From an uncultured Ruminococcus sp. (GTDB lineage Bacteria; Bacillota; Clostridia; Oscillospirales; Acutalibacteraceae): 37,395 nucleotides of DNA. A model generated the notes under the pieces. It saw only the letters and a program-made list of their open reading frames with translations. It had not been told where the DNA came from and made no database searches. This document shows positions 10,760-33,562 of the stretch, piece by piece; the stretch's first letter is position 1, and the number at the start of each line of letters is the position of its first letter. Position numbers and translations under genes: made by a program. The stretch lies in NCBI GenBank assembly GCA_902777275.1, contig CACYTI010000029.1, positions 1 to 37,395 on the forward strand, in the 5' to 3' direction.

Positions 10760-10797
10760 CCCGCCTGTTCACATAATGTGAGCAGGCGGGTGTTTTT
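10760..10797 (+). terminator. Rho-independent terminator of recombinase copy 2
   Basis: CCCGCCTG/CAGGCGGG arms with inner TCACA/TGTGA and loop TAA, followed by TGTTTTTG. The inner pair differs from copy 1 by a compensated G-C to A-T change. Confidence 0.9.
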
Positions 10798-17607: not shown

Positions 17608-18240
17608 TTACTCTTTCAGATGGATATTCCATCCCGTGTCGACTTTCTCATGTACTTTTTTCATAGTTTCCTCGTCTAAATCGGGCCAGTCGACCACAGT
17701 GCTTGCGTTTTTGGTTACCAGGTGGGCTTTTTCGGCGCACAGGGCGAGCGGCGTATCGGCAAGGGAGTCGGAATAGAAATTCTCGATAAGCGGAAAGCCG
17801 TTGTCGATTATATACTTTGCCTTTTCCTTAGCGTACATATGATTATTCACAAACACTCCGAATTCACGGTCGAATTCCGTAGCCATAAAGTTAACGCCGA
17901 GCCTGTTCGCGATAGGCTCTATAATGCAGCTGGGCGACGCGCTGATGATAAGATCGTCAGATCTCTTTTGCTTGAGATACCAAGAGGATATCTTCTTTTC
18001 GTTTTTGTCCCAATAACGCTCGATTTGTTCGTCAAAGTCATCTACAAGCGTCAGATACCCGAAAAACCTGCGCTGCATCAGATACTCCGGCATTTTCCCA
18101 AGCTTACGCAAAATCAGGTTCTTTAACGCTTTCGGAAAAAAGGTGAAATACATCTTTGGGTGCCGTTTCATGCACCAGAAGCAAAAGCCGATCGAGCAAT
18201 CCCCGGGGAAAATCGTTTTGTCAAAATCGTATACATTCAT
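17608..18240 (-). CDS. HAD-superfamily phosphatase, subclass IB
   Basis: A 210-residue phosphohydrolase. Motif I is VYDFDKT (Asp5 nucleophile, Asp7), motif II SASPS near residue 100, and motif IV DSLADTP (Asp158, Asp162), with a Lys in KEKAKYI. The helical cap (residues 15-90) is of the type in phosphoserine-phosphatase-like HAD-IB enzymes, which act on small phosphomonoesters. GAGAGG precedes the ATG. It starts 3 bp after the stop of the symporter gene, so it is the last gene of the leftward operon. The substrate is unknown; the link to transporter and decarboxylases suggests processing of a small carboxylic or amino acid phosphate. Confidence 0.88.
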   Translation of the reverse strand: MNVYDFDKTIFPGDCSIGFCFWCMKRHPKMYFTFFPKALKNLILRKLGKMPEYLMQRRFFGYLTLVDDFDEQIERYWDKNEKKISSWYLKQKRSDDLIISASPSCIIEPIANRLGVNFMATEFDREFGVFVNNHMYAKEKAKYIIDNGFPLIENFYSDSLADTPLALCAEKAHLVTKNASTVVDWPDLDEETMKKVHEKVDTGWNIHLKE

Positions 18241-18243
18241 TTT

Positions 18244-19869
18244 TTACCTCTCCGGTTTTATCTCATTTTGCGAGAATTGTTTTTTCTTGTATTTTTGCTC
18301 CTCTATGGCTACCGTGACGATATCTCCGATCACATTGATGATATTCTGCAGCCAGCCGAAAAATACTTCGGAAAATATGGCGATGATGATCAGCTTATCC
18401 GCTTTTAAATACATGGTGATGATAAGTATACCGATCATAATAGAGCCCGGCTGATTAGGCGCGCCGACAGAGAGGAACAGGATCAGGAAAGCTATGCCGA
18501 CGATCTGTAACCACGAGATCTCTATCCCCAGCAGAAAGATGATGCTCATCGAGATCAGCATGATCAAAAAGCAGTTTCCGTCCAGATTGGAATGAGCGAG
18601 TATGGGAAGACTATCCGAGAGCCTCTTTCTGTCGTATCTGTATTTGCGCGAGCAATATCTGATATTAAACGGGACCGCGTCAATTACCGAACTGATTTTG
18701 AAATTCTCCCATAGCAGCGCGGGCAGATGTTTTGAAAAGGACTTGATGTTTACTTTGCCGATGATCAGGCGTAACAAATAGAACACCGATATGACTACCA
18801 TACTGAGCGCGACGATAAGGAGTAACTCTAACAGGATCATAAGATTGGCGACGCCGTCGATCATCAGTATTGAGAGAGCCGCGAAAAAGCAGAAAAACGG
18901 CAATGTGAACATCACGACCGTCAGCATTTTAGAGAATACCTCTAAACTGATATGGATAAATTTGTGTACCGCGCCGAAATACTCTCCGATCGAACATAAC
19001 GCATAGGTCAGAAGCAGCGATAAAATAATGATCGGGAACGGCATGATAGTCTCGAACGGTTCAAATATGTTGCTCGGAACCAGTGAGTTGATGAACTCCG
19101 TCATATTCATACCGCTTGAGAACAAGCCTATCTTCGCGAAATAGCCCTGATGCAAGTATAAAACATCCGCAATGAGAGGACCCGTAAGCAGCGCAAGTAC
19201 GACTGCAATGAAGGAAGTGACGATCGTTTTTATTTGCAGTTTTCGGGCGGAGGAATTTTTTTCCGAAACGATATAGATGTCTGTCAGATTCCTGACAAGA
19301 GAAAAGAACGTGACCGGTGCGCCGATCATCAGCATTGCATTTGCGAACTGCTTGATGACAGGTTGAATATACTTATCATCGAGCGATATTAAATTGTCGT
19401 TACTGACGAACATGATCAACGCTATGCTGGCCGGCACAGCAAGAAGGATAGCGATAAAGCAGTAAATCAGAGATCTGTTGTTATTTCTTTTGACAACGAT
19501 GCTGACGCGGTTATAGCCCATGCGGTACCTATAGCCCACCTTGTCGCTGTATGCCTGAACTATCTGCAGCTCGGGCGAAATGCTCTTCTGATCTTTTTTC
19601 ATGCTCGGGATATATGCTTCGCCCTCAAAGCCGAGAGTGATCGTATATTCGCCGAAGTTTTTTTGCGCCTTTATGGTCACGAGGGTATCCTGACCGTAAT
19701 CCTGTTCGATCAAATCCTGAAACAGAGCCTCAAACAGCAGCATAGTCTCAAATGTACTTCTTTCGCCGATTCGCTTTTGTATCATCCACTGTTTGATAAA
19801 CTGATCGGCGGTCTCATAGCTTTCCGGTTTGAGCGGTATCTCAATTGAGTGTGTTTTTGCAAAACTCAT
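18244..19869 (-). CDS. SDF-type (dicarboxylate/amino acid:cation) symporter with N-terminal RsbW-like domain
   Basis: A 541-residue fusion. Residues about 130-510 hold about eight hydrophobic segments and the transporter core, with PFPIIILSLLL, a serine-rich SILMIDGVANL region and SVGAPNQPGSIM, resembling the helical-hairpin signature of sodium:dicarboxylate symporters. Residues 1-125 are soluble. FETMLLFEALFQDLIEQDYG aligns with the kinase motif of the RsbW-like protein encoded at 21897 (ISIAIDELFGNIARYAY), but the catalytic Asn is Asp, the ATP-lid DNG is lost, and no GLG box is seen. The domain is therefore probably a non-catalytic sensor or docking module. GGGGAG precedes the ATG. It follows the second decarboxylase by 36 bp. 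Confidence 0.8.
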   Translation of the reverse strand: MSFAKTHSIEIPLKPESYETADQFIKQWMIQKRIGERSTFETMLLFEALFQDLIEQDYGQDTLVTIKAQKNFGEYTITLGFEGEAYIPSMKKDQKSISPELQIVQAYSDKVGYRYRMGYNRVSIVVKRNNNRSLIYCFIAILLAVPASIALIMFVSNDNLISLDDKYIQPVIKQFANAMLMIGAPVTFFSLVRNLTDIYIVSEKNSSARKLQIKTIVTSFIAVVLALLTGPLIADVLYLHQGYFAKIGLFSSGMNMTEFINSLVPSNIFEPFETIMPFPIIILSLLLTYALCSIGEYFGAVHKFIHISLEVFSKMLTVVMFTLPFFCFFAALSILMIDGVANLMILLELLLIVALSMVVISVFYLLRLIIGKVNIKSFSKHLPALLWENFKISSVIDAVPFNIRYCSRKYRYDRKRLSDSLPILAHSNLDGNCFLIMLISMSIIFLLGIEISWLQIVGIAFLILFLSVGAPNQPGSIMIGILIITMYLKADKLIIIAIFSEVFFGWLQNIINVIGDIVTVAIEEQKYKKKQFSQNEIKPER

Positions 19870-19905
19870 AAATCTCCCCCACTATCCTGATTTTGTCCTG
19901 AATCA

Positions 19906-20634
19906 TCAACCGTTTCCCTGTTCTACTTCCTCGATCTCGTCCTTTGACGCTTCTTTAAGTGAATACGTGTCGAACGCTGCGTCCTTTGGCAGTTGTATTT
20001 CGATTCTGTCCATTTTTTGCAGCAGACATTCTCCGGAGTCTATGACTGCCTCAAAGACGTGTCCTCCGAGCTTTTTATCCTTAGACAAAAAGTGCATATG
20101 CCATCCCGAAGCGTTGATCCCGTCCATATAATCGGGGAAATACACACATACGAGCGTTCCGTAAAGCCCCTCGAAAGAAAAGTCCTTCTGAGTTTTTGAA
20201 AGGATATTTTTCAAAGAAACGTGCTGTGAGCGATACGGTGCTCCGGCGCGCGCGTGAATTCTTTTAAAACATCCGTCTATCCGCGCGATATGGATGCTGT
20301 TAAGACCGAAATCTTCTTCTATTTTCAGGGTCAGTTCCAGTTTTATGGCTTCAAGATTAGGCATTTCTTCTATTTTAAAGCTTCGTCCGTCTTTGACGAA
20401 TCCGGAAACCGCAAAGGGCACGCCTGCCGCGTCCTCCGACCGGACTATACTTCCGTCATCTTTAGCCTGATAACAGACTCCGTCTAAAACGATCATCTCG
20501 CCGTCTACATTCTCGAACGTACCGAGCCCCGTATCGCCGTGCTCAAGTAATTCACGGACCGTGACAACAGGCTTTGTATATCCGAGAGCCAAAGCCTGCA
20601 ATGTGGAAGCCTGGTATATTTTATTTGATTTCAT
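19906..20634 (-). CDS. alsD: Alpha-acetolactate decarboxylase, cytosolic
   Basis: A 242-residue enzyme that should convert 2-acetolactate to acetoin. Family motifs are GDTGLGTFENVDGEMIVLDG near residues 33-52 and GWHMHFLSKDKKLGGH, which gives the zinc ligands His179, His181 and His192 with the 2 and 11 residue spacing of known family members. An Arg in HARAGAPYR fits the substrate carboxylate site. There is no signal peptide. GGGGAGA precedes the ATG. It lies 38 bp downstream of a lipoprotein paralogue and upstream of the symporter. No acetolactate synthase is in the window, so the substrate may come from elsewhere or be a related beta-keto acid. Confidence 0.9.
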   Translation of the reverse strand: MKSNKIYQASTLQALALGYTKPVVTVRELLEHGDTGLGTFENVDGEMIVLDGVCYQAKDDGSIVRSEDAAGVPFAVSGFVKDGRSFKIEEMPNLEAIKLELTLKIEEDFGLNSIHIARIDGCFKRIHARAGAPYRSQHVSLKNILSKTQKDFSFEGLYGTLVCVYFPDYMDGINASGWHMHFLSKDKKLGGHVFEAVIDSGECLLQKMDRIEIQLPKDAAFDTYSLKEASKDEIEEVEQGNG

Positions 20635-20672
20635 AAGCGTTTCTCCCCGTTATGCTGATTTTGGAATCAGTA

Positions 20673-21560
20673 TTATTCCTCGTTTGTTTCAACCTTCTTT
20701 ATGGCGTCGCTGACGTCCTTTGAAAGCTCCATTTGCTGGAAATCACCGTTGTCAGTCAGGCACATATCAAATTCGGGCGTAGCGTCAAACTCCGCCGCTG
20801 CCTTGGCGAATTGAAGGTCAAGAATATGACCGCCCTTTGTTTTGTCATCGGAGATGAAATGGAAATGCCAGCCGGGGGTGTTCAGCCCACCCATATAATC
20901 GGGGCAGTACAACGCGACAACGGTACCGGTTATGTTGTCATAATTAAATTCCCGCTGATCTGTCGCAAGCGCTTCGTCGAGCGGCTTATAGGGCTTTTCC
21001 TGCTTTATTTCGCTGCGAACGTTCATCACATCAAAGGTGCCGCTTACTTTTACAAAGTAAAAGAGGTTTTTGCCGTTTTCCTCAACCATCGCATTTAGCT
21101 TTTCCTTTAAAGCGTTAATGTTATTGATGTCGGAAAGCTCCAAGCTGCCGTCCTTGTCAAAGAAGGTGACATTTGAGAACGGAACGGTTTCATTATTATC
21201 CGCTTCCTGAACCGTGCCGTCGCCGAGCGCCTGATACACCGTGCCGTCGAGCACGATCATCTCGCCGTTGACGCCCTCAAAGGTGCCGATACCTGTGTCG
21301 CCGTGCTGCTTTAGCTCGCTTACCTTGATAATGCCGTCATAGTAGCCCTGCGTGAGTGATTGCAGCAGCGCGACCTGGTAAATAGTTTCTCTGTCGTTTT
21401 CGGTCTGTGCGTTTGCGTTCACGGGCTGTTCGCTTTTGGTCTCCGATTGTTCGGCTTTGGTCTCCGACTGTGCACTCGTATCACCGGACTGCTGCGCGGA
21501 ACAGGCTGTCAAAGACGCCAACATTGCTGCCGATAAAAGAATTGCTGTGATTTTTTTCAT
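20673..21560 (-). CDS. alsD: Alpha-acetolactate decarboxylase, lipoprotein form
   Basis: A 295-residue protein with a signal peptide and lipobox LTACS (Cys19), a Ser/Glu/Thr-rich spacer to about residue 60 with the repeated ETKAEQSETKSEQ, then the decarboxylase domain. Motifs: GDTGIGTFEGVNGEMIVLDG and GWHFHFISDDKTKGGH, with zinc ligands His232, His234 and His245. It should act on the outer face of the membrane. The ATG at 21560 has AAGGAAGGA about 10 bases upstream. It is the first gene of the leftward operon. Secreted family members are known in Bacillales; a lipid-anchored one beside a cytosolic paralogue is unusual. Confidence 0.9.
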   Translation of the reverse strand: MKKITAILLSAAMLASLTACSAQQSGDTSAQSETKAEQSETKSEQPVNANAQTENDRETIYQVALLQSLTQGYYDGIIKVSELKQHGDTGIGTFEGVNGEMIVLDGTVYQALGDGTVQEADNNETVPFSNVTFFDKDGSLELSDINNINALKEKLNAMVEENGKNLFYFVKVSGTFDVMNVRSEIKQEKPYKPLDEALATDQREFNYDNITGTVVALYCPDYMGGLNTPGWHFHFISDDKTKGGHILDLQFAKAAAEFDATPEFDMCLTDNGDFQQMELSKDVSDAIKKVETNEE

Positions 21561-21636
21561 AATATAATTGTCCTTCCTTACAAAGTTTTTTGTTTTCACT
21601 GCTAAAAGCAGTTGACTTTTATATTTCCGCATATAT

Positions 21637-21665
21637 ATAATAAACAAAAACAACGCACAAATCAA
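21637..21665 (-). promoter_or_regulatory. Promoter of the decarboxylase-symporter-HAD operon
   Basis: Leftward: TTGATT (21660-21665), 17-bp spacer, TATTAT (21637-21642). The leader carries a small ACTGC/GCAGT hairpin near 21600-21612. Confidence 0.6.
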
Positions 21666-21685
21666 TATTTTTTATTAAATTAGCT

Positions 21686-21700
21686 GTTCCATTCTGGAAC
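21686..21700. promoter_or_regulatory. Palindrome between the two divergent promoters, probable shared operator
   Basis: GTTCCATTCTGGAAC is a 6-bp inverted repeat with a 3-bp centre. It stands 20 bp from the leftward -35 and 6 bp from the rightward -35, so one protein could control both operons. Confidence 0.5.
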
Positions 21701-21706
21701 ACCTGA

Positions 21707-21735
21707 TTGAAAAATACAAGAAAATGATGTACAAT
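21707..21735 (+). promoter_or_regulatory. Promoter of the RsbW-STAS-NRPS-esterase operon
   Basis: Rightward: TTGAAA (21707-21712), 17-bp spacer, TACAAT (21730-21735). It implies a leader of about 155 nt before the first gene. Confidence 0.65.
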
Positions 21736-21846
21736 AAAAAATAACAGACCATACCGAACCTATCATAACGAAGAAAATGAATCGGCATAAGTATTGATGC
21801 TGACTTCTTTGAAAAGGAAGCGCCCCGGTTTGAGTAACTGACAGCG

Positions 21847-21891
21847 CCTGGTCCGGAATACAACGGTCCTGAAAAATACCGGAACAGGGGG
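21847..21891 (+). promoter_or_regulatory. Leader hairpin overlapping the first ribosome binding site
   Basis: CCTGGTCCGG (21847-21856) pairs with CCGGAACAGG (21879-21888) with one mismatch. The 3' arm runs into the Shine-Dalgarno AGGGGG (21887-21891), 6 bases before the ATG at 21897. It could limit translation of the kinase gene. Confidence 0.5.
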
Positions 21892-21896
21892 AAAAT

Positions 21897-22307
21897 ATGA
21901 AAGAACTCAAGTTGGAAGCGGCAATAAAGAATATAGAAGCGGTAACGGATTTTGTAAACGCGGAGCTTGACCAGCTGAACTGTTCGCGGAAAGCGAGAAC
22001 TCAGATTTCAATAGCTATTGACGAGCTGTTCGGAAATATTGCAAGGTATGCCTACACCCCCGACGTCGGCAGCGCCGAGGTGCGGTTTGAGGTGGAGGAA
22101 GAACCGTTGTCGGTCATCATCACCTTTATCGACAACGGAAAGCCCTTTAATCCTCTGAAACGGGCTGATCCCGACACCAAAGCTTCGGCAGAGGAACGTG
22201 AAATCGGCGGACTCGGCATATTTTGGGTAAAGAAAGCCATGGATATGGTCGAGTATGAGTATAAGGACGGGCAGAACATCTTAAAAATCAAAAAAAAACT
22301 GACATAA
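21897..22307 (+). CDS. RsbW/SpoIIAB-like serine kinase (anti-sigma-type HATPase)
   Basis: A 136-residue GHKL ATPase. The N-box is IDELFGNIARYAY (Glu43, Asn47), the G1 box FIDNGKPFNP (Asp79, Gly81) and the G2 box GGLGIF (104-109). This set is complete, so it should bind ATP and phosphorylate a STAS partner. The STAS gene follows 98 bp downstream. In known systems such kinases sequester a sigma factor or other target until the unphosphorylated STAS protein frees it. No sigma factor lies in the window, so the target may be distant or not a sigma factor. AGGGGG precedes the ATG. Confidence 0.9.
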   Translation: MKELKLEAAIKNIEAVTDFVNAELDQLNCSRKARTQISIAIDELFGNIARYAYTPDVGSAEVRFEVEEEPLSVIITFIDNGKPFNPLKRADPDTKASAEEREIGGLGIFWVKKAMDMVEYEYKDGQNILKIKKKLT

Positions 22308-22405
22308 AAATACATAATTACAGATTTTGATCCGACCAAAAAGTCAGTCATCTCAGTATGTCTGAGTTAAAAATAAATAATAATAAAATTAAAAGGAGAA
22401 TAACA

Positions 22406-22708
22406 ATGAACATTAAGAAGAAAAAAGACGGAAACACACTGACCGTTGTTATTTCGGGAAGAATCGATACGGCAACTGCACCCGGGGCGAGCGCAAGCAT
22501 CAACGAAAGTCTTGATGATGTACAAAGCCTGATCCTTGACTTTACCGGTGTGGATTATATATCCTCGGCAGGTCTGCGTATGCTTCTTGCTCTTCAAAAG
22601 AAGATGATGGCAAGGGACGGAATGAAGCTTATCGGCGTTAACGATGATGTGAACGATGTGTTTGAAGTGACAGGCTTTGACGAGATTCTTACTTACGAAA
22701 AAAGGTGA
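22406..22708 (+). CDS. STAS-domain anti-anti-sigma-type antagonist
   Basis: A 100-residue STAS protein. The conserved site is DYISSAGLRML, with Ser54 the likely phosphorylated residue and Asp50 upstream of it; the fold begins TLTVVISGRIDTATAPG. AAAAGGAG precedes the ATG at 22406. The frame is open 16 codons further upstream without a ribosome site. It is the natural partner of the kinase encoded just before it. Its stop TGA lies 5 bp before the NRPS-like start, and AGGTGA across the stop serves as that gene's ribosome site, so the regulator and the biosynthetic gene are tightly linked. Confidence 0.92.
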   Translation: MNIKKKKDGNTLTVVISGRIDTATAPGASASINESLDDVQSLILDFTGVDYISSAGLRMLLALQKKMMARDGMKLIGVNDDVNDVFEVTGFDEILTYEKR

Positions 22709-22713
22709 GTGCA

Positions 22714-25701
22714 ATGACTGTTTTACAAATGCTTGAGGAATACACAAAGCAAAAGCCCAACGCGACTGTGCTTTTTGACGATGCTCACGCAAAGGGCATC
22801 ACATACACTCAGCTTGACGATCTGAGCGGAAGAGTTTTCGCGTATCTTTCCGACAAAGGGATAGGCAAAGAGGATTTTGTGCTTATCAATCTTCCGCGCG
22901 GAATCATGCCGATAATCGCGATGATCGGCGTATGGAAGTCGGGTGCGGCGTGGGCGCTTGTGGAGGATACCTACGCTCCCGATCGCATTGAGTTTATCAG
23001 AAATGACTGCGGCTGCAAAACCGAGCTTTCCGCCGAAAACTGGGAAGATATTATGGCGACCGAGCCAAAAAAGGGTTATGTTACGGCTGACGACCATGAC
23101 GCGGCTTACGCTATTTACACATCGGGAACGACAGGAAACCCGAAGGGCGTGCTGCATGAGTACGGCAACCTTAAAAGAGCCATTGACTCGATCATGGTAG
23201 ACGGAGAGACTCCCTTTAGCGGCAAAGACAGGATCGCTCTGCTCGCGCCGATGAACTTTGTCGCGTCGGTTATTGTAATTCTAAAGGCTCTCAGCATTTG
23301 TTCAGGCAGGATCTATGTTGTCAGCTACGCCACGATAAAAAATCCAATGGCACTCAAAATGTTCTTTATCGAAAAGCGGATCACGATCACGTTTTTAACC
23401 CCCTCTTACGTTCGTATGCTCGGAAATCAGACGGGACCGTTCCTTCGTATGCTCTTTGTCGGCAGCGAGCCTGCTAACAACGTGTACAACAAAAGCCTTG
23501 ATTTGATAAATATATATGCCGCGTCTGAAAGCGGCTTTGCCGTAGGCGTGTTCAAAATTGACAGGTCATACGAAACCTGTCCTATCGGCAGACCGGAAAT
23601 TGAGTGTGAGATCACGCTGATCGCCGAGAACGGCGAAACGGCTCCCGACGGAGAGATCGGTGAGCTTTGCTTTGACAATCCTTATGTGCGCGGTTACATA
23701 AATCTGCCCGAGGAAACTGAAAAGGCGTTCAAGGACGGCATTTATCACACCGGCGACCTTGCCCGTATCGACGAAAACGGCAACTATGTGCTGCTCGGAC
23801 GTTCCGGCGACATGATCAAAATAAACGGAAACCGCATTGAGCCAGCCGAAATCGAAGCCTCGGTAAAGCAGGTTCTCGGAATAAGCTGGGCGGCGGCGCG
23901 CGGATTTGAGGAAAGCGGCAAAAGCTACCTCTGCGCGTATTACACCGAGGACATCGAGGTAGATCCCGTCAAAATGCGCGAGGAGCTTTCAAAGCGACTG
24001 CCTTATTATATGATCCCCGCGTACTATATCAAGATCGACAAGGTGCCCCTCAAGGCGAACGGAAAAATGGACAGAAAGGCGCTGCCAAAGCCCGACGCGT
24101 CCGACTTCAAGACCGACTATGTCGAGCCCGAAAACGAGACCCAGCAGAAGCTCTGCACCGCAATGGCGGCGGTTCTCGGACTTGAGCGGGTCGGGATCAA
24201 CGATGACTTTTATGAGCTTGGCGGCGATTCCCTCGGCTCGATCAAGGTGATCACGGAAAGCGATTTGCCCGGACTTAACGCGAGTGAGATCTTCCGCGGC
24301 AGAACACCGAAGAAAATTGCCGAGATGTATGAGGAGAATCACAAAAACGATGACGGGGAGGATCCCGTTATCAAGAACGCTCGGGCTATGAAAACCGACC
24401 ATCCCCTCACGGTCGAACAGCTTTATATGGTTGACTATCAGCTTTACACGCCGAAATCGACAATGTACAACCTGTTCACGATGATGAAGTTTGACAAGGA
24501 TACGTTCGATACCGGAAAGATGGCTCAGGCAATGCGCACCGCTATCCGCAATCATTCCGCGCTTCTCACAACCTTCCGGTTTAACGATGACGGAGAGATC
24601 GTACAGCGTTACACGCCCGAGGTGCTGCAGGATATCCATGTAGAAAAGCTCAGCGAGTTTGAGTTTAATAACATCAAAGACAACTTAGTTCAGCCGTTTA
24701 AAATCATCGGCGGCTGTCTGCACCGCTGCCGCGTGTTTGAAACCGAGAAAAACGGTTATATATTCTTTGACGTTCACCACACACTTTTTGACGGAACCTC
24801 GCTAAAGGTGTTTATGCAGAACGTCGGCAAGGCGTATATGGGTATGCAGCCCGACCCGGATCTGTACTATCTGATTTTGCAGAACCGCGAGGAGGAGGCT
24901 AATACCGAGTTCTACGAGGAGAGCAAGCGCTACTTTGAGGAACACTTTGAAAATGTTGAGTGGTCAAGCTATCCCGAAACAGATCACGAGTCACGCAAAA
25001 ACGAAATGGGTGAGCTTTTCGCACCTATCGGAATCGAACAGCCGCAGATGAAGGCGATGGAAAGACAGTACCGTGTAAGCCGGAACGAATTCTTTATCAC
25101 CGTAGCAGTGCTTTCGATTTCTATATACAACAAAAAGGATGATATAAAGCTTTGCTGGATCTACAACGGACGCGAGGATATGACAGCCATGACCTCGGTC
25201 GGACTGCTGTTCCGAGAGCTGCCGGTAGGTATCCGTCTGAAGGACAGCACCACGCTCCGCGAGCTTTTTGCCGATGTTCATAACCAGGTACAAAGGGGAA
25301 TCGAGCACAGCTGCTATCCGTATGTTGACATTAACCACCGTGCCGGAAGCGAGGAAGCGGCTTATCTGCTGTATCAGCAGGATATCCGCGACATGGGCGG
25401 TTTGGATGGAATGGATATAGAAACCATTGACATCCGCCAGAATCAGGCGGCGTCGCAGACTGTTTTGGATATGGAGATCCTTGACGGCGAGGACGGTCTT
25501 GAGCTGATGATCGACTATACCGCAAGTCTGTATGACGACGCAAGCATGGATAGATTCAAGGATATCTTTATCAATGTAGCGCAGGGTCTGGTTACACACA
25601 ATTCTCAAACAGACGTAACTGTCGGCGAGCTCAGGAAAAAATACAGCAGCAAAAACACCTTCTTTGAAACGATTATGGCTATTTTCAGAAGAAAAAGATA
25701 A
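22714..25701 (+). CDS. NRPS-like enzyme with adenylation, carrier and condensation domains (A-T-C)
   Basis: A 995-residue multidomain enzyme. Adenylation (about 1-460): YTSGTTGNPKG near 134, TGDLARI near 345, GDMIKINGNRIEPAE, and ANGKMDRKAL with the catalytic Lys near 452. Carrier (about 470-550): GGDSLGS, phosphopantetheine Ser near 506. Condensation (about 560-980): VHHTLFDGTSL near 687, catalytic His intact. In the A4 region the sequence APMNFVASV has Val183 where alpha-amino-acid-activating domains have Asp, so the substrate probably lacks a normal alpha-amino group. There is no N-terminal condensation, thioesterase or reductase domain; release must come from the condensation domain or the esterase downstream. 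The ATG at 22714 is preferred over GTG 22705. Confidence 0.9.
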   Translation: MTVLQMLEEYTKQKPNATVLFDDAHAKGITYTQLDDLSGRVFAYLSDKGIGKEDFVLINLPRGIMPIIAMIGVWKSGAAWALVEDTYAPDRIEFIRNDCGCKTELSAENWEDIMATEPKKGYVTADDHDAAYAIYTSGTTGNPKGVLHEYGNLKRAIDSIMVDGETPFSGKDRIALLAPMNFVASVIVILKALSICSGRIYVVSYATIKNPMALKMFFIEKRITITFLTPSYVRMLGNQTGPFLRMLFVGSEPANNVYNKSLDLINIYAASESGFAVGVFKIDRSYETCPIGRPEIECEITLIAENGETAPDGEIGELCFDNPYVRGYINLPEETEKAFKDGIYHTGDLARIDENGNYVLLGRSGDMIKINGNRIEPAEIEASVKQVLGISWAAARGFEESGKSYLCAYYTEDIEVDPVKMREELSKRLPYYMIPAYYIKIDKVPLKANGKMDRKALPKPDASDFKTDYVEPENETQQKLCTAMAAVLGLERVGINDDFYELGGDSLGSIKVITESDLPGLNASEIFRGRTPKKIAEMYEENHKNDDGEDPVIKNARAMKTDHPLTVEQLYMVDYQLYTPKSTMYNLFTMMKFDKDTFDTGKMAQAMRTAIRNHSALLTTFRFNDDGEIVQRYTPEVLQDIHVEKLSEFEFNNIKDNLVQPFKIIGGCLHRCRVFETEKNGYIFFDVHHTLFDGTSLKVFMQNVGKAYMGMQPDPDLYYLILQNREEEANTEFYEESKRYFEEHFENVEWSSYPETDHESRKNEMGELFAPIGIEQPQMKAMERQYRVSRNEFFITVAVLSISIYNKKDDIKLCWIYNGREDMTAMTSVGLLFRELPVGIRLKDSTTLRELFADVHNQVQRGIEHSCYPYVDINHRAGSEEAAYLLYQQDIRDMGGLDGMDIETIDIRQNQAASQTVLDMEILDGEDGLELMIDYTASLYDDASMDRFKDIFINVAQGLVTHNSQTDVTVGELRKKYSSKNTFFETIMAIFRRKR

Positions 25702-25703
25702 CT

Positions 25704-27371
25704 ATGACAGAAAAAGAAAAAAACAGGATCCGTGGCAGCTACGGCGTTAATATGCCGATTTCGGGCAACTATGATAAAAGCCTTTCCGCAAGGTGCGAGA
25801 ACGGAGTTTTTGTCGGAAAAAAATCAGATCGCGTTTGCGAGTTCCGCGGAGTTCCGTTTGCAGAGCCTCCGGTGGGTGAGCTGAGGTGGAAGGCGCCAAG
25901 ACCGGTCGAAAGCAGCGGCGTTACAATGCAGGCGTACTACAACGGAAAATCGCCTATTCAGACCGAATGGCCGACTGAGCAGGCGTCGTATTACCGTCAG
26001 GGCGAGGACTGTCTGTATCTCAATATTTGGAAAGATTTTTACGACAGCACCCCCAACAAGCCCGTTATGGTGTTTTTTCACGGCGGCTCATACGGCTGGG
26101 GAGGTACAGCCGACCCGATGTATGACGGAAAACAATTCGTAAGTGCGCACCCGGATATAATCCTTGTTACCGTGGGCTACCGCACAGGTCTTATGGGATT
26201 TGTCGATCTGTCATATTTTGAGGGCGGTGAGGATTATCCCGACGCTCCGAACCTCGGTATTCTCGACCAAATAGAGGCACTTCGCTGGATACAAAGAAAT
26301 ATCCGGGCTTTCGGAGGTGACCCTGAAAACGTCACCGTATTCGGCGAATCAGCGGGAGGCGGAAGCGTATCGCTTTTGCCTATCATTCCCCGTACAAAAG
26401 GCTTGTTCCGCCGCGTTATTGCCGAAAGCGGGTCGGTGGCGCTGACATTCTCCAAGGAAGAGTGCCGCGAGTTTTCAAGACGGCTTAAAACCGTGAGCGG
26501 TGCCGTGTCGGTTTCGCAGCTGAAAGATCTCAGCGAGTTCGATTTGAAGCGGATCAACGAAAAACTGAACGAATACAATAATTTTCCTCAGCGTGACGGA
26601 AGGCTTATCCCGCTTAATCCGTATGAGCCTTACACAAAGGGCGAAACCGCGGACATTGATATGCTCATCGGCACAAACTCGGAGGAAATGAATTACTGGA
26701 TAGGAGAAATCGGCGGGATCATCCCGTTCCGATTCAGCGTTCCGATCAAATTTGAAAATGATCTCAGAAGGCTGTCGCACTCCGACAAAAAGTTGGTAAA
26801 TAAGTTTATGTCCTCGCAAAAGGGACACAGTCTGTGGCGTATGGCGCGGTTTTATGATGAAATGATGTTCCGACTTCCTGCCGTTGAGCAGGCTCGTCTG
26901 CACAGCAAAAACGGCGGAAGGGCATATATGTACTACTGGACAGTTCCCTCGGCTTTGCCGCTGCGCAAGGCGTGTCACGCTGTAGAGCTTGCGTATGTGT
27001 TCGGAAATATTGAAGAAACCATTTATACCGGCAAAACCGCAAACAAATTGCTTTCAGATACGGTAATGCGTATGTGGACGAACTTCGCGCGGACCGGCGA
27101 CCCCTCGATCGAGTCCGTGAAGTGGGAAAGGTACAGTGAGCCTAAGCGCGCGACAATGGTGATAGCCCGCCGCCCGCATATGGAAAATAATATTATGCAT
27201 AACCGGTGGAGGCTGTTGTCGCCGCTGCTGCGGCATATGATCAATCCTTCGTACGCTACGCTTGACTACAACGTGCCGTTTGTCAGAAAAGCGGTCGCCG
27301 GCGGATTGGCGCTCACCGCGGGGTTGGCAGCGGCTGCGATAATCGCTGTTAAGACACTCGGCAAAAGCTGA
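25704..27371 (+). CDS. Type B carboxylesterase with C-terminal membrane anchor
   Basis: A 555-residue carboxylesterase. Family start: CENGVFVGKKSDRVCEFRGV then PFAEPPVGELRWKAP; a QGEDCLYLNIW motif near 98; the oxyanion FFHGGSYGWGG; nucleophile GESAGGG (Ser about 215); acid in GTNSEEMNYW; base in KACHAVELAYVFGN. The last 25 residues are a hydrophobic helix (GGLALTAGLAAAAIIAV) ending KTLGKS. With no N-terminal signal, this would be a tail anchor with the catalytic domain in the cytosol. It starts 2 bp after the NRPS stop with a weak ribosome site, implying coupling. It may release or hydrolyse the NRPS-bound product. Confidence 0.88.
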   Translation: MTEKEKNRIRGSYGVNMPISGNYDKSLSARCENGVFVGKKSDRVCEFRGVPFAEPPVGELRWKAPRPVESSGVTMQAYYNGKSPIQTEWPTEQASYYRQGEDCLYLNIWKDFYDSTPNKPVMVFFHGGSYGWGGTADPMYDGKQFVSAHPDIILVTVGYRTGLMGFVDLSYFEGGEDYPDAPNLGILDQIEALRWIQRNIRAFGGDPENVTVFGESAGGGSVSLLPIIPRTKGLFRRVIAESGSVALTFSKEECREFSRRLKTVSGAVSVSQLKDLSEFDLKRINEKLNEYNNFPQRDGRLIPLNPYEPYTKGETADIDMLIGTNSEEMNYWIGEIGGIIPFRFSVPIKFENDLRRLSHSDKKLVNKFMSSQKGHSLWRMARFYDEMMFRLPAVEQARLHSKNGGRAYMYYWTVPSALPLRKACHAVELAYVFGNIEETIYTGKTANKLLSDTVMRMWTNFARTGDPSIESVKWERYSEPKRATMVIARRPHMENNIMHNRWRLLSPLLRHMINPSYATLDYNVPFVRKAVAGGLALTAGLAAAAIIAVKTLGKS

Positions 27372-27414: not shown

Positions 27415-27456
27415 ACAGGGCGTGTGAGTCAATTGCTCACGCGCCCTGTTTATCTT
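27415..27456. terminator. Terminator of the NRPS-esterase operon
   Basis: ACAGGGCGTGTGAG (27415-27428) pairs with CTCACGCGCCCTGT (27436-27449) with one G-T pair, then TTATCTT. It overlaps the stop of the convergent lipoprotein gene and may act both ways. Confidence 0.85.
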
Positions 27457-28190: not shown

Positions 28191-28946
28191 TCAAACTCGA
28201 TACGCTGCGACTACAAAGCGTCCGTTTTCCGTGTGGTAACTGCAGGTCGAAAGCATAATGATCTGTGTTTTCTTATCAGGACACTCGCCTGTAAACATTA
28301 CGGAAGCATCCTTTATATCATTAACAAACGCCTTATAATCCTCATCGCTGAGTTTACCTGCTCTTTCGTAGTATTTGAACTCGCTCTCGCTGCCGAGGGC
28401 GGTCTGAAATGCGGAAAAAACTCTATAGACACGGTTTTCGTCCAAGATGTCAAAATTGATATACTTGTGCTGCTCAGCCCACTCCTTATCGGCATAATAA
28501 TCAAGGGTGCCAAACATCGTACCGTTGTTCATATTATGGGCATATATAACAAACGCGTCTGCGTTGGAATAGTTCCTATCAAAATCGCGATGAAGATAAT
28601 ATTCGGGATCGTCTTCGCTCGATTTCATTACAGGATAATCTATGACCGTATCCTCGATTTTAAGCCAACCTTTGTAATTATCGTTGATTGCTGTTAAATC
28701 GTTAAACGCCGAGTGAGTTTCCTCTTTATAGGAGCCCGGACGGGTTTCTGCTTCCGCCGGTTGAGTCGAGCCGTTTTTTCCTTCTCTCTCCTGTTCGACG
28801 ATTTGCCGAATCTCGTCAAAGCGCTTTTGTTCCTGCTTTTGAGGAATGTAGATGATCAACCCCTGGTAAAGAGAGTACAACAACGTACAAACGCAAATCA
28901 CGGCAAGCAAAACCAGTATGATGTTTTTGGCTTTGATTTTTTTCAT
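28191..28946 (-). CDS. srtB: Class B sortase (second of the pilus locus)
   Basis: A 251-residue membrane transpeptidase with an N-terminal anchor (residues 8-34), a linker to about 75, then the sortase domain. Active site: His137 in YAHNMNNG, Cys235 in LSTCSYHT, Arg243 in NGRFVV; VIDYPVM is the usual class B lead-in. GAAGAGG lies 7 bases before the ATG at 28946. It starts 12 bp after the adhesin gene and closes the pilus operon. It should link a sorting-signal protein either to the pilus or to the cell wall; its substrate preference is not readable, but adhesin linkage is likely by position. Confidence 0.92.
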   Translation of the reverse strand: MKKIKAKNIILVLLAVICVCTLLYSLYQGLIIYIPQKQEQKRFDEIRQIVEQEREGKNGSTQPAEAETRPGSYKEETHSAFNDLTAINDNYKGWLKIEDTVIDYPVMKSSEDDPEYYLHRDFDRNYSNADAFVIYAHNMNNGTMFGTLDYYADKEWAEQHKYINFDILDENRVYRVFSAFQTALGSESEFKYYERAGKLSDEDYKAFVNDIKDASVMFTGECPDKKTQIIMLSTCSYHTENGRFVVAAYRV

Positions 28947-28958
28947 TAGCAAACCTCT

Positions 28959-31900
28959 TCAGGATCGTGCTTCAGGTCTTCTTTTTTGGGTGCGCAGTAA
29001 GAGGATCGCCATAAAAACAAGCAGGCAAATAACCATAACAATAACGCACGGTATGACGTTCATCAAATTATACAAGCCTGTCGAGACAACCGTGTTGCGA
29101 TCATTGGTTACGGCAAGCGTTGAATCCTCATAAATTTGGAAGATCTTGGTATTGCCCTCAGTCGCGGCAGCATCATCAAGCTTCATGCTCACAGAATAAT
29201 CCAGATTGTTTTCCCGGATGGTAATATCCTTTTTCACCGGCAACATGATCTTTACGACGTCGCCGTTCCTGAGGGTAAACGTCGAGTTGTTGTGCAGCGG
29301 TGCAGCTTGCTGGACGCCGTTTTTAGTCCAGGCGTATTCATCGGTAACATTCGCGCCCTCAACAGTCAAAGTAAACACAAATTCTTTTGTCTTGTCGCCT
29401 AAGGAGCCGGTAACGGTTTTTGTTATCGTCAATTCCGCGGGAATGGCGTCGTAATCGCGCAGATTTTCCGCTTCGACTCTATTGCTGGAGGTTGAAATGT
29501 CCGCGGCAGACTGCATAAAGTCACTCGGAGCGTTGTGCGGAGCTGATGCGTACTTACTGAACCAAAAATAGAAAGGCGGGGGATTCTCCGGGAGGATATA
29601 CCCGGGAGGCGCAGTGGTTTCCATGATACAATAGGCAGTGTCCGTTTGATATGCACTTGTTCCGTTGTCGTATTTATCGGTCAGTCTTATTGTGATTTTT
29701 CCGTCAGAGTTTGTTGTGTATGTTTTGGGGGTCGCAGACCATTTTTCGTTAACGGCATCCCAGATATATACGGTGAACACGGCATTGGACAGCGGTCTTC
29801 CGTCTTCTTGATCAGTTTTTATGAGCCAGAATTCCTCAATTATTGATTCACCGTACGTTTCGAAGTCCTCAGCTTTGATATGCGTGTTGTCATTTCCGGA
29901 CTCGTCTCCGTGTCCTTCCAGCGTTGCAGAGTTGGAAAGCGTAATTCCGCCATCCATAGTACTGTTGACCTGATAACTGTAAGTCAGACGCAGGTGCGTG
30001 CTGTCGGGAACCTGCATTTCGATGAACGCATGCTTTACGGTCGGATCAACGGAATCGGTTTCGGTATGTGCAGTCCATTGTATATTATGCAGTTCGGACC
30101 AGACGCCGTTTTCCTCTTTTTCGAGTCGAACGGAATTCAAGCTGAGGATCGCCTCTCCGGTACCCGTTCCCTGCCTTGCCTCATACGTAAGCACATCCGT
30201 AAGCGACAGCCATTCGGGATCGTCCGTTCCGCCGCTGCCTGTGAGAAGGTTTTCGGCAGACGGGTTGATATCCACCGCATAGTTGAGCATATGCAGGTCT
30301 TTGTCCCAGCTGCTGGCCTTGTCAACGATTTTTTCCTTTTTGGTCGCGTCAATATTGATCTGATTGTCCGCCTCGCCATAATTATTGCCGTTTGTCTCAA
30401 CACTTACTGTGTTGTTGAGTTCAAGATGAACTGTACCGTTTTGAGGCCACACATCCTCAGCGAGCTGACAGTAATAGATCACAAAGAAAGTATTGTTGAA
30501 CAAATCGGAACTATTATATTTTGGCTTCAGCGTAATGTCAACCACTTGTCTGCCGGAGGTTGAGAGCTGTCCGGATGCCAATGTCTCGCTTTGCCAGAGA
30601 TTGCCGATTTCTCCGGAAATCACACCGTCAGCATCAATTGTCAATAAGTTGTACGGGCCGTCATTCATCCCGTAATTATACGGGGTCAAAGGAGCCGGAA
30701 TCACTTTGACGCCGATCAGTTCAACCCCTTCCGGAAGCGTGTCTGTAACGCTATACTGCTGCAAACCCGGAGTTGGTGTAACCTGCGCGATCCAGACGAA
30801 AGACTTGTCTTCGTCTTCATAATCAAGCGAGATAGAATAGGGCTGCTCCGAAAAGTCCGTTTGCCAATCGCTGATCTTTTGCACATTCAGCTTTTTGACG
30901 TTAGGGCTGATATTGTTGATGACCGGCAGTGTCTTTTGTCCGTCTGAAAACGTATTGACGAACGACTCCGAAACTTTGCCGCTCATATCCCCGGTGGTCT
31001 GATGATATTGCCATGTGATATCTTCAACCGTTCCGTCATCGTCATCAAAAAGATATCCGCTGCCCGCTGTGCCGACGGTAAATGTATATCCGGTGATATT
31101 GCCTCCGGTATACACAGGCGTGACAGACACATTCGGACCCCAGGCTGTTTGAAGCGCGGAAACAAGCGCGACATACTGAGCCTGAGTCATATAGTGACCG
31201 TCGGGACTCAGCGTATCGGAGAATGATGTGCCGGACTTAATGCCGCCCACGGGGATCTGAACGTTGATCGTCCAGTTCATCCCGTGCAGATCGTTTCCGA
31301 GGCTCTGTTCTCCGTCCGCCGTTTTTTCAATATCGCCGCCCGTAACAACAACGTCGTAAGACGCGGTATCACCGTCGAAGTTCGCGTCGTTATGTACGAT
31401 GGCGGTCTCGCCGTACAAGAAAGCGAACGCCGATGATCTTGTTATCGTTATTGTAAACAAACTCGTAATCTACGCCGGGCGTCGCATCATCCCAGCCCCT
31501 CTGAACGAAGATGCCGTTGGTTCCGAGGATCGTTTCATTCTGCGCATCCGCAAAGCCGTTGTCATAAATGACTTTTCCGGCAATATCGCTTCCGCGGTCG
31601 TTGACGGAAATATACCACTGAATGTATTCGCCGAAAGGAATACCGTCTTTTCCGACCTTTTGGGGCTGCTTATTATAAATGAAATAATCCGCGTGATCCG
31701 TTGTTGTGTCATGGTTGTTTGTTGAGGTGGCTTCAAGCGTGTTGTATGCCGAAACAGCCGCGTTCTGATCCGGCAAACCGGTCACCCCGTATTCATATAC
31801 AAGGGTATAATACTCGTTATCATCGAGCTGGGGCAGATTGAGCGATATCTCGTATATGATCGGCGAAAAAGCGTCAATATGTCCCTGTGTGGAGATAACG

Positions 31901-32877
31901 GAGGTCTCGATGGTTCCGTCCGCATTATGCTTTACGACCGAGATCTCTGTCGGCGGGCTTACTGTTCCGCCGCCCGAATACGTAAAGGTATCCGTAACGT
32001 CTATGTCGGACGGCGTACCGTGTACGGAACTGACAGTGACCTCATAGCGAAGCTTGCCGTCGGCAGTGTAAGAACCTGTCTTCTGCGTCGTGATATCATA
32101 ACCCTCATTGATATCCTCCGGCGGAATATGCAGCGACTGGCTGTCGGTAAAGACAATATCCAGTCCATCGTGACTGGCATCGCCGTCGTATCTGATAAAA
32201 CACCTGCACCTCAGAATGTTGTTGATATATGGGACTCCGCTTTCAACGGCTTCCTGAACAAAATCATCATCGTAAACGATTTCTATTCTGTAATGACCGT
32301 CGCCGGTAAGTATAAAATCATATGTGAACGCCAGTTCAAGCTCGGGGTACTTGTCGAACAGGTACGCATAGAACGAACCATCGATGATAAGCTCCTCAGG
32401 GATGACCACTTCTTCCGGGATATCATACACGAACTTATATCCGGCGTTTGTTACTGCGTCGATGCACTCTGTATCGATTTCAAAATGGAACTCAAGTGTT
32501 GACTGATAATAATTATCTTCGATCTTAGTCGTTCCTGACGCGGCAACATTTGTTATGTAGCTGTCGAGCGGCACATCTCCGTTCGGTGCCGATCTCAGCT
32601 GACCGGACGGCGCTTTGCGCGCCTTCGTTTTGGTTTTTTTCGATCCGCCGGAAAAGCTTGAGGAAGCCGTAGGAGTGTTTGAATTGTTGAAACGATTATC
32701 GTCGACGGCAGAAACAACAGGAGCAAGGTATCCTCCAAGGCTTCCCGTCATAAGAATCACGACAAGGATGAACGTTACCGCTCTGCTGATATTATGCTTT
32801 GCGGTTCGTAAATCAGCCACGATAAAGGAGGATAAGCGCAGTGCGGCTGCTGATATTGATTTTTTTAGCTGATACAT
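28959..32877 (-). pseudogene. Large pilus-type adhesin, frameshifted once
   Basis: Two frames join near 31411-31420, where one extra base (CTTGTACGG; CTTTACGG would continue the frame) separates NNDNKIIGVRFL from YGETAIVHNDANF. The joined protein would be about 1305 aa. It has a long basic N-terminus with a membrane-spanning signal (about 37-58), several beta-sandwich domains (DTLPEGVELIGVKV-type), an SpaA/Cna-B domain near residue 1030 (LIKTDQEDGRPLSNAVFTVY, then TAPPGYILP), and a C-terminal domain homologous to that of the major pilin. The end reads VVSTG, a hydrophobic helix and RTQKRRPEARS. Position and size suggest a pilus tip adhesin. It may be inactivated, or the extra base may be an error. 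Confidence 0.8.
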
Positions 32878-32924
32878 ACGCAAACCCTTCTTTCTTTTTG
32901 ATTTGTTATGTATATGTTATGGTA

Positions 32925-33560
32925 CTAATTTTCTTTTTTGTTTTTCCTGTTTATCATTTTCTGCGTATCAATAAGATACACTATCGACAGCGCAAGCAAT
33001 CCGGCGGACGCGATTATGGCGAACAGAAAGTATATCTCCATTCTGGTATCGTCATTTGTCTTGGGATTTCTGTTTTTGTCGAGAGGCGAACCGTCGCTAT
33101 CACTTGAGTCCGTTGGAGTGTCTTTCGGATTGGTAGTCGGTTCATCGCCGCCCTTTTCGGTGTTGACAAAGATGAGGCGGCTGAACTTTTCCTCACCCTT
33201 TGAGGCGATCACAGTCGCTTCGAGCCTGCCGTCATTGTCGGTCACATAAAACTTAATATTATAAACCGTGTCGTCAAACTCGATATCTCTGTCATCGGGG
33301 ACTGTTTTGACAGTATAGTCGAAAACGCCAACCTCGGTAAAAACTATTTCAAACTTTCCGATTTCTCCGTCTTTAAGCGTCAGCTCTGTTTTTTCGGGGA
33401 TCGGACAGTTAACGTTCGGTATTATCGCTACCGTGCCGCCGAGAGTGACCTCAACTTCTATCTCAGTCCTAACGGGCTGATACGCATAGGCGTATGCGGT
33501 AAACCCGAATAAGCCCGGCATAAGTAATATTAAAATGCAAAATGTAAGTATTTTCTTCAT
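32925..33560 (-). CDS. Small pilin/anchor subunit with NPKTN sorting signal
   Basis: A 211-residue surface protein: signal peptide (1-26), one beta domain of the Spy0128-like pilin type (GKFEIVFTEVGVFDYTV, then NIKFYVTDNDGRLEATV, then RLIFVNTE), a Pro/Thr/Asp-rich linker, then NPKTNDD, a hydrophobic helix and the tail KMINRKNKKEN. The signal fits class B sortases. It may be the basal subunit that links the pilus to the wall. AGGGA precedes the ATG. It starts 2 bp after the first sortase stop, so the two are coupled. Confidence 0.85.
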   Translation of the reverse strand: MKKILTFCILILLMPGLFGFTAYAYAYQPVRTEIEVEVTLGGTVAIIPNVNCPIPEKTELTLKDGEIGKFEIVFTEVGVFDYTVKTVPDDRDIEFDDTVYNIKFYVTDNDGRLEATVIASKGEEKFSRLIFVNTEKGGDEPTTNPKDTPTDSSDSDGSPLDKNRNPKTNDDTRMEIYFLFAIIASAGLLALSIVYLIDTQKMINRKNKKEN

Positions 33561-33562
33561 TT

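What the first reader, a model, noticed from the sequence alone, without database searches (positions are those of the whole stretch)
17608..27371. Two divergent operons join acetolactate decarboxylases, a sensor-fused symporter, an RsbW/STAS switch and an A-T-C NRPS-like enzyme
The sequence shows eight genes in two tight operons (gaps 2-98 bp) leaving one 336-bp region. Each family is known alone; the combination is not one I can match to a described pathway. The shared motif is the kinase fold: a complete RsbW-like protein starts one operon and a worn copy of the same fold is fused to the transporter in the other. Inference: substrate uptake sensed at the symporter is passed to the kinase/STAS pair, which sets production of a compound made by the NRPS-like enzyme and esterase, while the decarboxylases and phosphatase handle a keto-acid-type substrate or by-product.
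Basis: partly seen in the sequence, partly recalled or inferred. Interest (0 to 1): 0.75.

Follow-up and report, generated by a model that had tools for sequence, protein, structure and literature searches.

The report
Partner-switch modules: synthetase beside a transporter
Two separate gene modules of a gut Clostridia bacterium lie side by side here: an on/off protein switch tied to a small peptide-synthetase-like enzyme, and a sodium-driven transporter that carries a dead copy of the same switch kinase; such switches are best known for controlling gene readers (sigma factors), and here they seem to be tied to enzymes and transporters instead.

Summary
In detail: eight genes, two divergent operons, a kinase fold fused to the symporter. 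They are not one pathway. The right half (RsbW-STAS-[A-T-C synthetase]-carboxylesterase) is a conserved module of the genus: synthetase at >=70% identity in 70 of 161 genomes; STAS directly upstream in 57 of 66 loci, esterase directly downstream in 54 of 63; SpoIIE phosphatase nearby in 22 of 40, a MATE exporter with a fused kinase-like domain in 15 of 40. The left half (symporter, two acetolactate decarboxylases, HAD) is beside it in none of 67 other loci; the sister genome has them 17 kb apart. The fused domain has lost its ATP site. The synthetase pocket lacks the Asp that holds alpha-amino groups, so it may load a keto, hydroxy or acyl acid. Sigma genes hardly ever accompany the modules. 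Best reading: partner switches whose outputs are transporters and a synthetase; eight literature searches found no such system.

The parts
17608..18240 (-). HAD-IB-like phosphatase (210 aa), last gene of left operon
   Evidence: PF12710 E 2.1e-8; DFDKT motif; ortholog 91% identical behind the symporter in L287
18244..19869 (-). SDF (glutamate/dicarboxylate-type) symporter with an N-terminal pseudo-RsbW domain (residues about 1-130)
   Evidence: PF00375 E 1.8e-30; N-domain vs RsbW profile prob 95.2; AlphaFold model matches GltPh-type folds; ATP-site residues lost
19906..20634 (-). Acetolactate decarboxylase without signal peptide (probably cytosolic)
   Evidence: PF03306 E 6.2e-62; HMH...H motif, no hydrophobic N-terminus
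20673..21560 (-). Acetolactate decarboxylase, probable lipoprotein (lipobox-like LTAC, read by eye)
   Evidence: PF03306 E 8.1e-76; aligned over its length with 4bt2; HFH...H motif and N-terminal hydrophobic stretch
21561..21896 (.). Divergent intergenic region; DNA homology to the sister genome breaks between 21613 and 21808
   Evidence: blastn to G106 loci
21897..22307 (+). RsbW/SpoIIAB-like serine kinase (136 aa), ATP-site residues intact
   Evidence: PF13581 E 1.9e-20; N-box, D79-x-G81 and G104-G105-x-G107 present; below RsbW/SpoIIAB equivalog cut-offs
22358..22708 (+). STAS (RsbV/SpoIIAA-like) protein with conserved SSAG serines
   Evidence: PF01740 E 2.4e-16; both serines in 73 of 73 STAS aligned
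22705..25701 (+). A-T-C NRPS-like synthetase (998 aa), pocket code V-A-I-F-L-V-I-F-A-K
   Evidence: PF00501, PF00550, PF00668; pocket and catalytic motifs in 68 aligned orthologs
25704..27371 (+). Type-B carboxylesterase with C-terminal hydrophobic stretch
   Evidence: PF00135 E 6.8e-97; GESAGG and hydrophobic stretch at 531; directly downstream of the synthetase in 54 of 63 loci

Best explanation
Two partner-switching modules lie next to each other. Right module: RsbW kinase and STAS protein form a phospho-switch (phosphatase SpoIIE supplied from elsewhere in this genome; in many relatives it is in the same gene cluster). The switch does not serve a sigma factor encoded with it; its output is the A-T-C synthetase and, in relatives, a MATE exporter with a fused kinase-like domain. 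The synthetase adenylates a carboxylic acid without an alpha-amino group (keto, hydroxy or acyl acid), loads it on its carrier domain, and its C-terminal condensation domain passes it to a free amine or hydroxyl acceptor; the membrane-anchored esterase trims or releases the product, MATE exports it. Left module: a symporter whose N-terminal pseudo-kinase domain docks a STAS protein, so that the phosphorylation state of STAS gates uptake; the two decarboxylases (one outside on the membrane, one inside) and the HAD act on the transported acid. Shown: gene content, conservation, dead ATP site, intact switch residues, pocket residues. Inferred: docking of STAS, direct protein-level output, substrates, acceptor, product.
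For: STAS directly upstream (-56 to +26 nt) of the synthetase in 57 of 66 loci, esterase directly downstream in 54 of 63; RsbW in 22, SpoIIE in 22, fused MATE in 15 of 40 loci with >=4.5 kb on both sides. Genome-level co-occurrence: MATE fusion (>=57% identity) in 41 of 70 synthetase genomes vs 4 of 91 others, Fisher p 6e-15, not corrected for relatedness. Named records with synthetase relatives show the theme too: L150 (72%) synthetase-MATE-STAS-SpoIIE, L155 (51%, titled Lachnospira) synthetase-MATE-RsbW-STAS-SpoIIE. Symporter loci with their own switch genes. Graded loss of the ATP site: Asn47 and Asp79 kept in 34 of 35 RsbW (one gap), 22 and 23 of 24 MATE-fused domains, 3 and 0 of 43 symporter-fused domains, which still keep Asn127 of the last strand in 40 of 43. 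Sigma B/F/G-type gene in 3 of 121 loci checked, one being the genome's own spoIIA operon (a control). Pocket position 235 is Val/Ile in 68 of 68 and position 325 is not Pro, as in keto-acid A domains. A PPTase-family gene in a 216-aa frame is in the genome.
Against: 16 of 40 synthetase loci show no RsbW, SpoIIE or MATE nearby, and the most distant stand-alone relative, L156 (43%), shows none of STAS, RsbW, SpoIIE or MATE at the cut-offs used, so control must often act in trans or be absent. 9 of 66 loci lack STAS in front. The genome has a SigF-like and another SigB/F/G-family sigma factor, so a sigma output in trans is not excluded. The full pocket code matches none of the five printed keto-acid codes, and McyG shows that Val at this position can go with Phe. 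17 of 24 genus symporter loci (window counted) and 8 of 17 distant ones have no such switch gene nearby, though several flanks are short. No interaction data; the AlphaFold model of the synthetase failed (pLDDT 48).
Confidence: 0.5

Rival explanations
1. Canonical partner switch in trans: this RsbW is an anti-sigma factor for a sigma factor encoded elsewhere (SigF/SigG-type), and the switch sets transcription of the two operons.
For: RsbW and STAS catalytic residues are intact; SigB/F/G-family sigma factors are matched in 161 of 161 genus genomes at E<=0.001 and over the curated cut-off in 137.
Against: The genome has a separate SpoIIAB (195.6 bits, cut-off 135) in a SpoIIAA-SpoIIAB-SigF-like operon, whereas the window RsbW scores 29-42 bits against equivalog cut-offs of 135-155; sigma genes are in only 3 of 121 loci, the spoIIA control included; the sigma factors also occur in genomes without the synthetase, so they do not track it.
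Confidence: 0.25
2. One eight-gene pathway: symporter takes up a substrate, switch senses it, synthetase and decarboxylases process it.
For: Divergent adjacency from one 336-bp region; one distant locus (L067) joins fused symporter, STAS, an NRPS, SpoIIE and RsbW; symporter and synthetase co-occur at genome level, 19 of 25 symporter genomes vs 51 of 136 others, Fisher p 7e-4, not corrected for relatedness.
Against: Adjacent in the window only, in 0 of 67 other synthetase loci; 17 kb apart in the sister genome; 6 of 25 symporter genomes lack the synthetase; the symporter operon has its own divergent RsbW-SpoIIE-STAS set in L286 and L287.
Confidence: 0.12
3. Juxtaposition without function: both modules are ordinary accessory genes brought together by rearrangement, and the STAS/RsbW pair is a remnant without its phosphatase.
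For: DNA homology to the sister genome breaks inside the intergenic region; SpoIIE and MATE fusion are missing from the window; the genome's close MATE fusion lies on contig C12 and its six SpoIIE genes on C1, C11, C12 and C27.
Against: Genes are intact, with 82% (RsbW), 81% (STAS) and 89% (synthetase) identity to G106 and 76% (esterase) to G013, and active-site residues are conserved.
Confidence: 0.13

Closest known systems
RsbV/RsbW/RsbU (sigma-B) and SpoIIAA/SpoIIAB/SpoIIE (sigma-F) partner switching
   Same: Kinase of the RsbW fold with intact ATP-site residues, STAS protein with the serine, SpoIIE phosphatase in the cluster in many relatives
   Different: No sigma gene in the module; RsbW below the equivalog cut-offs; transporter-fused (pseudo-)kinase domains and an NRPS-like enzyme in the cluster instead
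Non-canonical STAS-only switches (SypA/SypE of Vibrio fischeri, BtrV/BtrW of Bordetella), passages of PMC8256260 seen
   Same: STAS/kinase pair whose output is not a classic freed stress sigma factor
   Different: Those act on biofilm genes and type III secretion; in the 12 of 45 passages shown, transporters appear only as SLC26/SulP proteins that contain a STAS domain, not as outputs of a partner switch
A-T-C part of NRPSs such as AusA (NF047350 positions 413-1304) and LgrA
   Same: Domain order and core motifs
   Different: Stand-alone 998 aa, no second module, TE or reductase found by Pfam; pocket without Asp235
Keto-acid A domains (CesA, CesB, StsA)
   Same: Val/Ile in place of Asp235; Pro of YGPTE replaced, as in StsA
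   Different: Rest of the pocket hydrophobic, not VGMWNG; no ketoreductase domain found
GltPh/EAAT (SDF) transporters
   Same: Fold; NxDG motif and C-terminal NV-x-GD aligned
   Different: Arg-Thr pair and neighbouring Asp of the substrate site replaced in the alignment; N-terminal pseudo-RsbW domain

Membership tests
Canonical RsbW/SpoIIAB-sigma partner switch | Kinase with intact N-box and glycine boxes | tested here: met
Canonical RsbW/SpoIIAB-sigma partner switch | STAS protein with conserved serine | tested here: met
   73 of 73 aligned STAS
Canonical RsbW/SpoIIAB-sigma partner switch | Reaches the equivalog score of RsbW or SpoIIAB | tested here: not met
   41.9 of 145, 34.7 of 155.05, 29.2 of 135 bits
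Canonical RsbW/SpoIIAB-sigma partner switch | Cognate sigma factor encoded with it | tested here: not met
   none in the window; sigma B/F/G-type gene in 3 of 121 loci: spoIIA control, L076, L156
Canonical RsbW/SpoIIAB-sigma partner switch | SpoIIE/RsbU phosphatase in the cluster | tested here: inconclusive
   absent in the window, present in 22 of 40 relatives; six SpoIIE genes elsewhere in the genome
NRPS | A, T and C domains with core motifs (A10 Lys, T Ser, HHxxxDG) | tested here: met
   67-68 of 68
NRPS for alpha-amino acids | Asp at GrsA position 235 | tested here: not met
   Val 66, Ile 2 of 68
Keto-acid A domain | Pocket code of the printed examples (starting V-G-M or G-I-F) | tested here: not met
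   V-A-I-F-L-V-I-F-A-K; with the V-G-M codes it shares little beyond the first Val and the Lys
GHKL kinase (symporter N-domain) | ATP-site Asn and Asp | tested here: not met
   Asn47 in 3 of 43, Asp79 in 0 of 43
GHKL/RsbW fold (symporter N-domain) | Homology to RsbW over the domain | tested here: met
   hhalign prob 95.2; model strand order
SDF symporter | Pfam SDF above cut-off and GltPh fold | tested here: met
   106.7 bits vs 27.9; Foldseek E 1.2e-9
Acetolactate decarboxylase | Pfam score above cut-off and HxH...H motif | tested here: met
   the 242-aa copy is just under the TIGR01252 equivalog cut-off, 172.8 vs 180.65
Partner switch with transporter or synthetase output | Physical binding of STAS to the fused domains or the synthetase | not testable with these tools
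   only gene order and residue conservation are available

The most novel reading that the evidence does not exclude
A family of partner switches in gut Clostridia in which the phosphorylation state of a STAS protein directly gates membrane transporters (SDF importers with a dead RsbW domain, MATE exporters with a half-intact one) and an NRPS-like synthetase, replacing the sigma factor as output: post-translational control of uptake, synthesis and export by one switch.
Probability: 0.35. Interest if true: 0.85.

Novelty: new variant of a known kind. Interest (0 to 1): 0.6.

Why it matters
Partner switching is best known (recalled; also the passages) as a way to release sigma factors. If STAS proteins here dock on dead kinase domains fused to transporters, the same switch controls flux of small molecules directly, and an uncharacterised synthetase found in 70 of 161 genomes of a Ruminococcus-like genus would be under its control. 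It gives a concrete, testable target for an unknown rumen/gut metabolite.

Tried and rejected
One eight-gene pathway: rejected as the main reading after the neighbourhood counts. Presence or absence of SigB/F/G sigma factors as a discriminator: failed, they are matched in all 161 genomes, so only co-location was used. AlphaFold of the synthetase: unusable (pLDDT 48). Foldseek with the whole symporter model: the 50 rows shown of 407 are SDF transporters, so the N-domain was tested by profile comparison instead. Promoter and terminator patterns: promoter-like sites near the shuffled expectation (19 vs 14.4, sd 4.3), terminator-like 19 vs 11.6, sd 3.5; two plus-strand promoter-like sites lie in the divergent gap and a strong stem follows the esterase at 27415-27449. 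Rfam at gathering scores: only a tRNA. Literature: eight searches (listings seen) showed nothing that describes such a module; a ninth served the pocket question. Only open-licence PMC papers are held. Of papers I saw passages of PMC5238615, PMC11253843 and PMC8256260, no whole text.

Caveats on counts: loci come from draft genomes and many flanks are short. Genome counts of synthetase (70 of 161 at >=70% identity, plus G060 at 51%, treated as without it in the Fisher tests), MATE fusion (45 of 161 at >=57%) and symporter (25 of 161) were tallied by hand from the rows. Neighbourhoods were fetched for 67 synthetase loci (66 genomes; contig-edge fragments in G171, G107, G122 and G173 were left out) and for 24 of 25 symporter genomes (G073 left out). 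'Nearby' means on the synthetase strand and within 3 kb, anywhere in the fetched stretch. One search counted 16 MATE neighbours over 400 aa; one search splits them into 15 fused (>=560 aa) and 1 unfused. In one search one RsbW (L070, 158 aa) also gave a weak hit to the symporter profile. In one search STAS stretches inside larger proteins of 404-429 aa (L289, L303) were not counted. One search left out symporters under 450 aa, MATE under 560 aa, STAS of 150 aa or more, fused SpoIIE-RsbW proteins and identical copies. Fisher tests ignore relatedness. The family profiles used were built in my scripts from the loci themselves.


Full report
What is there. The eight genes exist as described. The left operon reads ALDC lipoprotein, ALDC, symporter, HAD on the minus strand; the right operon reads RsbW, STAS, A-T-C synthetase, carboxylesterase on the plus strand. 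The symporter's first 130 residues align with the RsbW family in a profile comparison (probability 95.2, E 2.7e-8), and the AlphaFold model shows a matching order of strands and helices. The transport part matches GltPh-type structures.

Host. The window is contig C29 of a 2.59-Mb genome for which no name is given. The genus is therefore Ruminococcus-like, from the gut of ruminants at least in part.

Right module. The synthetase is at >=70% identity in 70 of 161 genus genomes (hand tally), plus one at 51%. Of 67 fetched loci other than the window, 66 have >=300 bp upstream and 57 of these have STAS directly in front (-56 to +26 nt); 63 have >=1,400 bp downstream and 54 of these have the esterase directly behind, with overlapping ends in 52. 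Of 40 loci with >=4.5 kb on both sides, RsbW is near in 22, SpoIIE in 22, a MATE exporter with a C-terminal kinase-like domain in 15 (one more has an unfused MATE), RsbW, SpoIIE and fused MATE together in 13, none of them in 16. One recurrent order is SpoIIE-RsbW-MATE fusion-STAS-synthetase-esterase, another has RsbW-SpoIIE behind the esterase; in some genomes SpoIIE and RsbW are one protein. Pfam was run on one MATE fusion (L046; MatE and HATPase_c_2); the others were recognised by profile. Relatives among public records mostly keep the theme: L150 (72%, Ruminococcus sp.) has synthetase, MATE, STAS, SpoIIE; L155 (51%, Lachnospira sp. UBA5912) has synthetase, MATE, RsbW, STAS, SpoIIE; L149, L151 and L154 have MATE behind the synthetase; L152 and L153 have the esterase; L156 (43%) has none of these at the cut-offs used. 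In the window's own genome a SpoIIE-RsbW-MATE fusion-STAS set without synthetase lies on contig C12, and SpoIIE genes lie on C1, C11, C12 and C27; the window therefore needs a phosphatase in trans.

Left module. Symporter orthologs (57-87% identity) are in 25 of 161 genus genomes, 19 of which also have the synthetase. In 24 loci examined (window included) an ALDC gene lies within 2.3 kb in 7, a small STAS gene is near in 7, SpoIIE in 5. L286 and L287 show the window's divergent design with another partner: ALDC-ALDC-symporter faces STAS-SpoIIE-RsbW. L287, L294, L295 and L298 add HAD and an FGGY-type sugar kinase, the first three also a GtrA-like protein. Of 17 further loci (16 in other genera of the order, one in G060) 9 have at least one of SpoIIE, STAS, RsbW; L146 holds SpoIIE, MATE fusion, HAD, FGGY kinase, RsbW, STAS and symporter in one run, L067 holds symporter, STAS, a C-A-T-reductase NRPS, SpoIIE and RsbW. 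With six SpoIIE genes per 2.59 Mb about one SpoIIE neighbour would be expected by chance among 24 stretches of at most 19 kb (my arithmetic); five are seen. Most genus symporter loci (17 of 24) show no small STAS.

The join. Neither the symporter nor a decarboxylase appears in the flanks of the 67 other synthetase loci (0 of 67). In the nearest relative, G106 (synthetase 89%, symporter 86%), they lie about 17 kb apart on one contig and point the same way; DNA homology to the window stops at 21613 on the left side and resumes at 21808 on the right. The window's RsbW and STAS are of the synthetase type (82% and 81% to G106's), not of the symporter type (50-54% for RsbW, 38-42% for small STAS). 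So this looks like a recent neighbourhood of two modules.

Residues. Aligned kinase-like domains show graded decay: RsbW (35 sequences) keeps Glu43, Asn47 and Asp79 in 34 with one gap; MATE-fused domains (24) keep Glu43 in 24, Asn47 in 22, Asp79 in 23, Gly107 in 22 but Gly81 and Gly105 in only 2 each; symporter-fused domains (43) keep Glu43 in 18, Asn47 in 3 and Asp79 in none, yet Gly81 in 42 and Asn127 in 40. A dead ATP site in a conserved fold suggests a docking role; that is inference. The STAS serines are in 73 of 73.

Synthetase chemistry. By alignment with LgrA (GrsA motif positions recalled) the ten pocket positions read V-A-I-F-L-V-I-F-A-K and hardly vary over 68 orthologs. The position of GrsA Asp235, which binds the alpha-amino group, is Val (66) or Ile (2), and the Pro of the YGPTE motif is Ala, Ser, Met or Cys. 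Four of the five printed keto-acid codes start with Val, StsA has Ile there and Met for the Pro, and a McyG domain with Val still takes Phe (passages only). The pocket as a whole matches none of the five printed codes. I read this as a hydrophobic acid without alpha-amine: keto, hydroxy or acyl. The terminal condensation domain keeps HHxxxDG (67 of 68, one gap). A PPTase-family gene in a 216-aa frame is present. Acceptor and product are unknown.

Symporter chemistry. In the alignment with a solved aspartate transporter the NxDG motif and the C-terminal NV-x-GD residues are kept, while the Arg-Thr pair and the neighbouring Asp are replaced. From recalled knowledge of GltPh (R397, D394) this speaks against glutamate or aspartate as substrate. 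The decarboxylases, one a probable lipoprotein and one without signal, point to acetolactate-like acids, but only by association.

Sigma question. The genome has a spoIIA-type operon on C12: SpoIIAA-like, SpoIIAB (195.6 bits, cut-off 135) and a SigF-like sigma factor (209.6 bits, below its own cut-off of 321.45). The window RsbW reaches 29-42 bits against cut-offs of 135-155. A sigma profile found a gene in that operon, in L076 and in L156, and in no other of 121 loci including the window. A sigma target in trans cannot be excluded, since all 161 genomes match sigma factors of this group.

Verdict. Observation confirmed; interpretation partly right. Novelty: a new variant of partner switching. 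Eight literature searches showed no description, within an open-licence library only.

Noticed in passing
window 1435-3099 and 9131-10796: Two 88.5% identical stretches 7.7 kb apart that read like serine recombinase genes (by eye, no profile search); the first copy is in two frames (410 and 103 aa), the second in one frame of 588 aa.
   Followed up: partly
window 28191-36399, minus strand: By eye two sortase-like proteins, several large surface or pilin-like proteins with a C-terminal membrane stretch and a signal-peptidase-like protein: perhaps a pilus or surface-fibre cluster.
   Followed up: no
L104 (G000:C2:4500-17000), 1-7796, minus strand: A MATE-type gene (584 aa, 24% to the MATE fusion, kinase-like C-terminus) lies directly upstream of a large NRPS-like frame (>=2012 aa, runs off the stretch): a second exporter-synthetase pair in the same genome.
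   Followed up: partly
L166, 5863-19077: In an uncultured Firmicutes record a SpoIIE-RsbW fusion lies divergent to a 2457-aa protein with three synthetase-like stretches and a MATE-fusion-like gene behind it.
   Followed up: no
L046 16126-17253; L073 2876-4009: A STAS domain fused to an APH-type phosphotransferase domain (Pfam on L046; L073 by clustering) near the synthetase module.
   Followed up: no
L046 11831-12679 and five other loci of the same cluster: A Bax-inhibitor-1-like protein (Pfam on L046) next to or near the esterase, in some loci on the other strand.
   Followed up: no
L069 5622-7217: A 531-aa protein without Pfam match directly behind SpoIIE-symporter-STAS-RsbW.
   Followed up: no
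L284 about 7190-7399; L285: The second decarboxylase gene is mostly missing in G106 (69-aa remnant) and in two frames in G092, while the lipoprotein copy is one frame in both.
   Followed up: partly
L296-L298, L066, L146: An FGGY-type carbohydrate kinase is a frequent neighbour of the fused symporter, also where no decarboxylase is found.
   Followed up: partly
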